The position numbers and the translations under genes are program-made. A DNA stretch of 33,831 bases from Desulfobulbaceae bacterium (GTDB lineage: Bacteria > Desulfobacterota > Desulfobulbia > Desulfobulbales > Desulfobulbaceae). How positions within the stretch are numbered: the first letter of the stretch is position 1; the number at the start of each line of letters is the position of its first letter. The DNA lies in contig WFRY01000330.1 in NCBI GenBank assembly GCA_015486315.1, positions 1 through 33,831 on the forward strand, in the 5' to 3' direction. Below the pieces are notes generated by a model, which was given only the letters and a program-made list of their open reading frames with translations, was not told the origin of the DNA and searched no databases. Positions 3,950 through 15,987 of this stretch are shown in pieces.

Positions 3950-4063
3950 GGCTGTTCTCCATTGGAATTTATGCGTAAATGAGCAATTATGAATTATAGT
4001 GCAACAGTACAGCAAATATTGAGTATAATACCCTATCAGGTCGAAAAAAAACGAAGAAAAGAG

Positions 4064-4266
4064 GTAACTATTCAGGAGCAGCTCACGGAGTCTGCGCTTA
4101 CCTCTTCACCCATTTAAACCCTCTCGAGTAGCATAAGTACGCTTCGCGGTCTTAAATGAACAGGTAGATAAGCGAAGACTTCGAGCGTAGACTCCGAATC
4201 TAAGGCACTCCCGAACAGTTACAGGCTGGTGGTATTGCCAATGTATTTTACTACCTGAAGAGTTAC
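4064..4266. mobile_element. MITE-like element, family A copy 1 (non-autonomous, no transposase)
   Basis: Begins GTAACTATTCAGGAGC and ends CTACCTGAAGAGTTAC (inverted ends), flanked by the perfect 8-bp direct repeat GAAAAGAG (4056-4063 and 4267-4274); long internal palindrome; second copy at 15644-15795. Confidence 0.85.
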
Positions 4267-4488
4267 GAAAAGAGTTGCGCTGGGGCGTATTTATCCGTCA
4301 CTCCCTTCTGACAGAGAAAATAAGAAAAAACAACCGGTGGTTGAAAAAGAGGTTTACAGAAAGGCTCAAGTGTCTGATAATTACCCCCTATATACCTGCA
4401 AAATATTTCGGGTTGTAATAAGTATACCAAGTCACCATGTTACGACTATCTACCCGATTCAAAATGACTCAATAAAATTGCTGACAAA

Positions 4489-15619: not shown

Positions 15620-15643
15620 TCCCTGTACTCCAATACAATTATT

Positions 15644-15795
15644 GTAACTATTCAGGAGCACCTCATCTTCGCCCATTTAAGCCTGCTCGAGTAGCACTAG
15701 TACACTTCACAGTCTTAAATGAACGAATCTAAGGCACTCCTGAACAGTTACAGGACGGTGGTTTTGCAAGTTTTCTGCACCACCTGAATAGTTAC
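15644..15795. mobile_element. MITE-like element, family A copy 2
   Basis: GTAACTATTCAGGAGC...GCACCACCTGAATAGTTAC, perfect 8-bp direct repeats CAATTATT (15636-15643 and 15796-15803); shares blocks CTCGAGTAGCA, GTCTTAAATGAAC, GAATCTAAGGCACTCC, GAACAGTTACAGG with copy 1. Confidence 0.88.
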
Positions 15796-15987
15796 CAATT
15801 ATTATATATAAAATCTAAAATTATACCCACCCTCTGGCCGTCTTGTAAACAACTCTCTTTCCCCATATTCCGGAAGACGCTTATATCCGGAAACGCTTTA
15901 CATTTACCGGCGAACCCGGTATTCTTTGCTATTAATGCAAAAAACAATCCGGAACAATCAGTACACGTAATTTAAATAGGGATAACA

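What the first reader, a model, noticed from the sequence alone, without database searches (positions are those of the whole stretch)
4056..4274. MITE-like element with a perfect 8-bp target duplication (family A, copy 1)
The sequence between GAAAAGAG direct repeats starts GTAACTATTCAGG and ends with its approximate inverse (CCTGAAGAGTTAC). No coding capacity is visible. Exact flanking 8-mers, different from those of copy 2, are what transposition predicts. GTAA-type ends with 8-bp duplications recall IS66-family elements; that parentage is inference.
Basis: partly seen in the sequence, partly recalled or inferred. Interest (0 to 1): 0.72.

Follow-up and report, generated by a model that had tools for sequence, protein, structure and literature searches.

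The report
IS66-type MITE with 17-bp inserts
This is one of roughly a hundred copies of a small non-coding jumping element in the genome of a sulfate-reducer-type bacterium; its ends match a full transposon in relatives, and it carries three copies of a 17-letter sequence that itself appears to have been inserted precisely in many unrelated places across the same bacterial order.

Summary
Window 4064-4266 (203 bp) has 13-bp imperfect terminal inverted repeats (12/13), no contained ORF, and perfect 8-bp GAAAAGAG repeats. It is a real MITE. In the same genome, 32 family copies have near-matching 8-bp flanks; 28 are perfect and all 28 differ (chance 0.7 expected). Empty orthologous sites exist in same-genus genomes for copy 1 and copy 2. 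The IS66 inference is supported: complete 1.6-1.7-kb single-ORF IS66 elements (ISBst12-type) in genomes of the same family carry near-identical ends and 8-bp duplications, but no such element was found in the window's own assembly. First, an extra inverted TIR lies 45 bp inside the right end in nearly all copies. Second, copy lengths step by 17 bp (152/153, 170, 187, 203) because a 17-bp module, GGTAAGCGNAGACTCCG, is present or absent precisely at fixed sites. Copy 1 is the 152-bp core plus three modules, one nested inside another. The module is interspersed across Desulfobulbales, inserted after A without target duplication into several unrelated repeat families. It resembles the "very small mobile repeated elements" of cyanobacteria. 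How it moves is unknown.

The parts
4056..4063 (.). left copy of the 8-bp target site duplication, GAAAAGAG
4064..4266 (+). MITE copy 1, 203 bp (152-bp core plus three 17-bp modules)
4064..4076 (+). left terminal inverted repeat GTAACTATTCAGG
4086..4102 (-). 17-bp module U (GGTAAGCGCAGACTCCG on the - strand), left-arm site
4112..4157 (.). central imperfect palindrome ATTTAA...TTAAAT of the core
4163..4196 (+). right-arm module U (GGTA|AGCGTAGACTCCG) split by a second, nested module
4167..4183 (+). nested 17-bp module variant GATAAGCGAAGACTTCG; removing it restores an intact U
4210..4222 (-). inner (subterminal) inverted TIR copy, CCCGAACAGTTAC
4254..4266 (-). right terminal inverted repeat CCTGAAGAGTTAC
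4267..4274 (.). right copy of the target site duplication, GAAAAGAG
15636..15643 (.). left target duplication of copy 2, CAATTATT
15644..15795 (+). MITE copy 2, 152 bp, without any U module; aligns without gaps (84%) to copy 1 minus its three modules
15739..15751 (-). inner inverted TIR copy in copy 2, CCTGAACAGTTAC
15796..15803 (.). right target duplication of copy 2, CAATTATT

Best explanation
Window 4064-4266 is a non-autonomous miniature transposon (MITE) mobilised in trans by an IS66-family transposase of the single-ORF ISBst12 type. The transposase recognises the ~13-bp GTAACTATTCAG(G/C) ends and inserts the element with an 8-bp staggered cut that leaves GAAAAGAG on both sides (shown: ends, duplications, empty sites, full elements with matching ends in relatives; inferred: the trans-mobilisation itself). 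The core is 152-153 bp with a central palindrome and an additional inverted TIR 45 bp inside the right end, kept in most copies, which may be a second transposase-binding site (inferred). Copy 1 grew from 152 to 203 bp by three precise insertions of a 17-bp module (U, GGTAAGCGNAGACTCCG): one in each arm and a third inside the right-arm module. U behaves as an independent very small mobile repeat that inserts after A without target duplication (shown: precise presence/absence; inferred: mobility; mechanism unknown).
For: 46 matches in the own genome; 28 perfect, all-different 8-bp duplications among 98 TIR pairs, shuffle mean 0.69. Element absent at the orthologous locus of copy 1 in G004 (both flanks present) and G002 (left flank only, contig ends just past the site), and at the locus of copy 2 in G001 and G004. 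Complete IS66 elements in the same family: G067 1713 bp, ten transposase matches in that genome, ends GTAACTATTCAGC both sides, duplications GTTGTTTT and GATTTGTA; G077, G078, G081 of 1595-1608 bp with GTAACTACTCAGCC-type ends, G066 of 1692 bp with GTAACTACTCAC, each with perfect 8-bp duplications. The G067 transposase scores 283.9 bits on NCBIfam IS66 NF033517 (cut-off 180) and matches PF03050 and PF20042. IS66 transposase remnants in same-genus G003 and in G018 end shortly before GCTGAATGGTTAC or GCTGAACAGTTAC. Published: ISDge4, ISBst12 group, TIRs GTGACTACTCAGCA/GTAACTGCTCAGCA, seen to transpose with an 8-bp repeat CCTCGATG (PMC12898284). Copy lengths and module sites; copy 1 minus three 17-mers aligns gaplessly to copy 2.
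Against: No relative of the matching transposase was found in the own assembly, which is 89% complete in 485 contigs; the four IS66-family hits there carry no matching ends nearby. MITE interior and IS interior are not alike, so descent by internal deletion of a known IS is not shown. The inner TIR is not visible in the IS ends inspected. Flanks at the empty sites are diverged, so the single target copy is only approximate (GAAAAGAT in G002). No transposition was observed.
Confidence: 0.9

Rival explanations
1. The MITE is moved by some other 8-bp-duplicating transposase (not ISBst12/IS66) whose ends happen to resemble GTAACT.
For: No matching IS66 transposase was found in the own assembly.
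Against: The same end sequence and the same duplication length occur in complete IS66 elements of five genomes of the same family and in transposase remnants of the same genus. Multi-copy IS elements are often lost from short-read assemblies (general knowledge).
Confidence: 0.08
2. The element is a degenerate relic or host-maintained palindrome (for example a regulatory or terminator repeat), and the 8-bp flanks are coincidental.
For: It has a strong fold as single-stranded DNA (z -3.3) and lies in a divergent intergenic region between an acetolactate synthase gene (-) and an AAA ATPase gene (+).
Against: 28 perfect, all-different duplications and four empty-site comparisons. No promoter- or terminator-like site scored within the element, and counts in the region are at shuffle level.
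Confidence: 0.02
3. For the 17-bp modules: U is an ancestral part of the MITE that is precisely lost in some copies by deletion or template switching, not a mobile insert.
For: U sits at the same two sites in MITE copies from several genera, and paired inverted U would form a longer stem prone to deletion.
Against: U occurs with clean empty counterparts in several unrelated repeat families; 15 of 59 sampled U sites have an empty counterpart against 0 of 59 and 0 of 60 at shifted control positions; a U variant lies inside another U.
Confidence: 0.15
4. For the 17-bp modules: U is a REP-type sequence spread by a Y1 (RAYT) transposase.
For: U is short, often intergenic in the cases seen and often in inverted pairs; rarer 24-bp forms have a small GCGAGCTCGC-like palindromic centre.
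Against: None of 30 Y1-transposase loci from seven genomes contains U. The genome with most U copies, G020 (218), has no Y1 hit. U has no GTAG tag and is not itself palindromic. U is found inserted inside GTAG-type REP-like sequences.
Confidence: 0.1

Closest known systems
IS66 family, ISBst12 group (single-ORF), e.g. ISDge4 of Deinococcus geothermalis (PMC12898284)
   Same: Terminal sequence GTRACTNCTCAGC-like, 8-bp duplication; full elements with an IS66 transposase found here in the same bacterial family.
   Different: The window element is 203 bp, non-coding, with an unrelated interior, an extra inner TIR and 17-bp modules.
Bacterial MITEs such as MITECca01 (IS982-derived, PMC9769881) and MITEPsy1 (PMC3189936)
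   Same: Short, non-coding, TIR-bounded, multi-copy, presumed to be moved in trans by an IS transposase.
   Different: Different transposase family and duplication length. A search of the held papers for IS66 together with MITE terms found none that describes an IS66-derived MITE among those opened; the library is incomplete. Here size is quantised by 17-bp inserts.
Small dispersed repeats of cyanobacteria (Elhai et al. [quoted passage not shown] paper itself not held, details from memory)
   Same: For the U module: about 20 bp, interspersed, precise presence/absence, found inside other repeats, no target duplication, mechanism unknown.
   Different: Unrelated sequence (from memory), 17 bp rather than 21-27 bp (from memory), and in Desulfobulbales rather than cyanobacteria.
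REP/REPIN elements with RAYT transposases (PMC3116915, PMC3733652)
   Same: U is short, interspersed, often in inverted pairs.
   Different: No GTAG tag, not palindromic, not linked to Y1 transposase genes in the loci examined.

Membership tests
IS66-type (ISBst12 group) MITE | Terminal inverted repeats beginning GTAA, matching a full IS66 element | tested here: met
   GTAACTATTCAGG versus GTAACTATTCAGC in the 1713-bp IS of G067
IS66-type (ISBst12 group) MITE | 8-bp target site duplication | tested here: met
   28 perfect, all different, of 98 TIR pairs; shuffle mean 0.69
IS66-type (ISBst12 group) MITE | Short, no transposase gene | tested here: met
   203 bp, no contained ORF of 20 aa or more
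IS66-type (ISBst12 group) MITE | Many copies and element-free orthologous sites | tested here: met
   46 matches; empty sites in G002 and G004 (copy 1), G001 and G004 (copy 2)
IS66-type (ISBst12 group) MITE | Proposed parent has an IS66-family transposase in a single ORF | tested here: met
   NF033517 283.9 bits vs 180; one 489-codon open frame spans most of a 1713-bp element
IS66-type (ISBst12 group) MITE | Autonomous partner in the same genome | tested here: inconclusive
   Not found in the own assembly, but it is 89% complete and broken into 485 contigs; a remnant is in same-genus G003
IS66-type (ISBst12 group) MITE | Mobilisation in trans by the transposase | not testable with these tools
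   Needs an assay
REP/RAYT system (for module U) | Linked Y1 transposase gene flanked by the repeat | tested here: not met
   No U in 30 Y1 loci; no Y1 hit in G020, which has 218 U
Very small mobile repeated element (SDR-like, for module U) | Precise empty sites in unrelated contexts, no target duplication | tested here: met
   15 of 59 vs 0 of 59 and 0 of 60 controls; preceded by A in 132 of 134
Very small mobile repeated element (SDR-like, for module U) | Sequence relation to the Nostoc SDRs | not tested
   The source paper is not held

The most novel reading that the evidence does not exclude
The 17-bp module U is an independently mobile micro-element of the order Desulfobulbales. It is inserted without target duplication after A into repeats of several kinds, including this MITE and U itself, by an unknown, possibly single-strand or hairpin-based mechanism; the MITE is one vehicle in which it spreads.
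Probability: 0.55. Interest if true: 0.72.

Novelty: new member of a known kind. Interest (0 to 1): 0.5.

Why it matters
The MITE gives an IS66-type example with identified full-length relatives, so trans-mobilisation by the poorly characterised ISBst12-type transposases becomes testable, including the role of the conserved inner TIR. The quantised 17-bp inserts offer a clean natural record of how very small repeats enter bacterial DNA, a question raised by the cyanobacterial reports, in an order with cultured members that carry U (Desulfogranum marinum, Desulfobulbus rhabdoformis).

Tried and rejected
Plasmid collection search with the element: no match. Rfam: only weak, sub-gathering microRNA hits, judged chance. 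Own-genome IS66 hits as parent: no matching ends nearby. RAYT/REP origin of module U: rejected on lack of linkage. Promoter or terminator function of the element: nothing above shuffle level. A test whether U sites in general lie in inverted repeats was only weakly positive (23% above the 95th percentile of re-paired flanks).

Full report
Observation. No ORF of 20 aa or more lies within it. It sits in a divergent intergenic region between an acetolactate synthase gene on the minus strand and an AAA ATPase gene on the plus strand. Copy 2 is 15644-15795 with different flanks, CAATTATT; it lies between an acetylglutamate kinase gene and an lptA-like gene.

It is a MITE. The own genome (G000, 3.75 Mb in 485 contigs) holds 46 BLAST matches. 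In retrieved stretches, 98 pairs of TIR-like ends were tested; 28 have identical 8-mers outside the ends, all different from each other, against a mean of 0.69 and a maximum of 5 in 1000 re-pairings. Four further pairs have one or two mismatches. From TIR-motif counts (467 hits against 103 for the reversed control) and about three motifs per element, I estimate very roughly 100-120 copies in the genome; this is an inference, not a count. Related genomes of the same genus lack the element at the orthologous loci. For copy 1, G004 has both flanks with the element missing, and G002 has the left flank up to a GAAAAGAT shortly before its contig ends. For copy 2, G001 and G004 have both flanks without it. 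The flanks are diverged, so the single target copy is not letter-perfect.

Parent. Searching 75 genomes of the family with an IS66-type transposase remnant found in same-genus G003 brought in complete IS66 elements. The one in G067 is 1713 bp, with ten transposase matches in that genome. It has GTAACTATTCAGC at both ends and perfect 8-bp duplications at two inspected copies; G066, G077, G078 and G081 carry elements of 1595-1692 bp with GTAACTACTCA-type ends and perfect 8-bp duplications. The G067 transposase is IS66 by NCBIfam (283.9 bits, cut-off 180) and Pfam PF03050 plus PF20042, and one long open frame spans most of the element, as in the ISBst12 group. A paper in the library reports ISDge4, of that group, transposing with ends GTGACTACTCAGCA/GTAACTGCTCAGCA and the 8-bp repeat CCTCGATG (PMC12898284). 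The own assembly holds no matching transposase, which may reflect assembly loss of a repeated IS. MITE interiors share only the ends with the IS.

Nearly all copies carry a further inverted TIR (GTAACTGTTCAGG type) about 45 bp inside the right end; in copy 1 it is 4210-4222 and in copy 2 15739-15751. In G001 and G004 many matches cover chiefly this right-end segment, so I infer it matters for transposition, perhaps as a second binding site; the IS ends I inspected do not show it.

Copy lengths are quantised: 152/153, 170, 186/187 and 203 bp. The steps are a 17-bp module U, GGTAAGCGNAGACTCCG, present or absent at two fixed sites, in neither, either or both arms. Copy 1 has one at 4086-4102 (minus strand) and one at 4163-4196 that is split by a third, nested module variant at 4167-4183. 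Removing the nested 17-mer restores an intact U, and removing all three leaves exactly 152 bp that align to copy 2 without a gap at 84% identity.

Module U beyond the MITE. With up to one mismatch U occurs about 65 times in the own genome, 149 in G018, 218 in G020 and 35 in G004; the reversed control pattern gives zero in each of the ten genomes scanned. U is preceded by A in 132 of 134 sites and shows no target duplication. Clean empty counterparts exist in unrelated repeat families, including, in the own genome, GTAG-type REP-like sequences and other repeats. Of sampled sites, 15 of 59 have an empty counterpart, against 0 of 59 and 0 of 60 for 17-bp windows shifted by 30 bp. Some genomes carry U in head-to-tail tandem. 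Longer forms, mostly 23-25 bp with a variable centre, exist but are rarer. U is not linked to Y1/RAYT transposase genes. The nearest precedent I know is the 'very small mobile repeated elements' of cyanobacteria (Elhai et al. 2008; cited in PMC3116915; the paper itself is not held, so the comparison rests on memory). How U moves is unknown; a mobile insert is my preferred reading, precise loss of an ancestral unit the main rival.

Judgement. The finding as given is a well-supported new member of a known kind: an IS66-type MITE. A text search of the held, incomplete paper library found no description of an IS66-derived MITE among the papers opened, so how unusual that parentage is remains open. 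The interest above routine comes from the nested 17-bp modules.

Noticed in passing
window 4086-4102, 4163-4196 (nested 4167-4183); 134 sites in loci L164-L282: A 17-bp module GGTAAGCGNAGACTCCG, interspersed across Desulfobulbales, with precise empty counterparts in unrelated repeats, no target duplication and insertion after A; occasionally nested or in tandem.
   Followed up: partly
L157-L163 (G007): A second MITE-like family with ends GGCATCCTTCAT...ATGAAGGATGCC in a related genus also carries the 17-bp module, in some copies on both arms of a central hairpin.
   Followed up: no
L023, L031, L065 (own genome): Composite or distinct elements of 207-351 bp with the same TIRs (starting GTAACTATTCAGCAG) and matching 8-bp flanks, some containing a family-A core, suggesting nested insertion or end exchange between MITEs.
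   Followed up: partly
own-genome contigs C8, C32, C54, C120, C338 (L069, L070, L076-L078): Several contigs begin inside a MITE, with its two right-end TIRs at bases 94-106 and 139-151, suggesting that near-identical copies break the assembly.
   Followed up: no
L339, L345 (own genome): GTAG-type REP-like sequences (GTAGGAGCCCGCCCCTGCGGGCGAT) are present, and the 17-bp module is inserted at the tip of some of them.
   Followed up: partly
   Followed up: no
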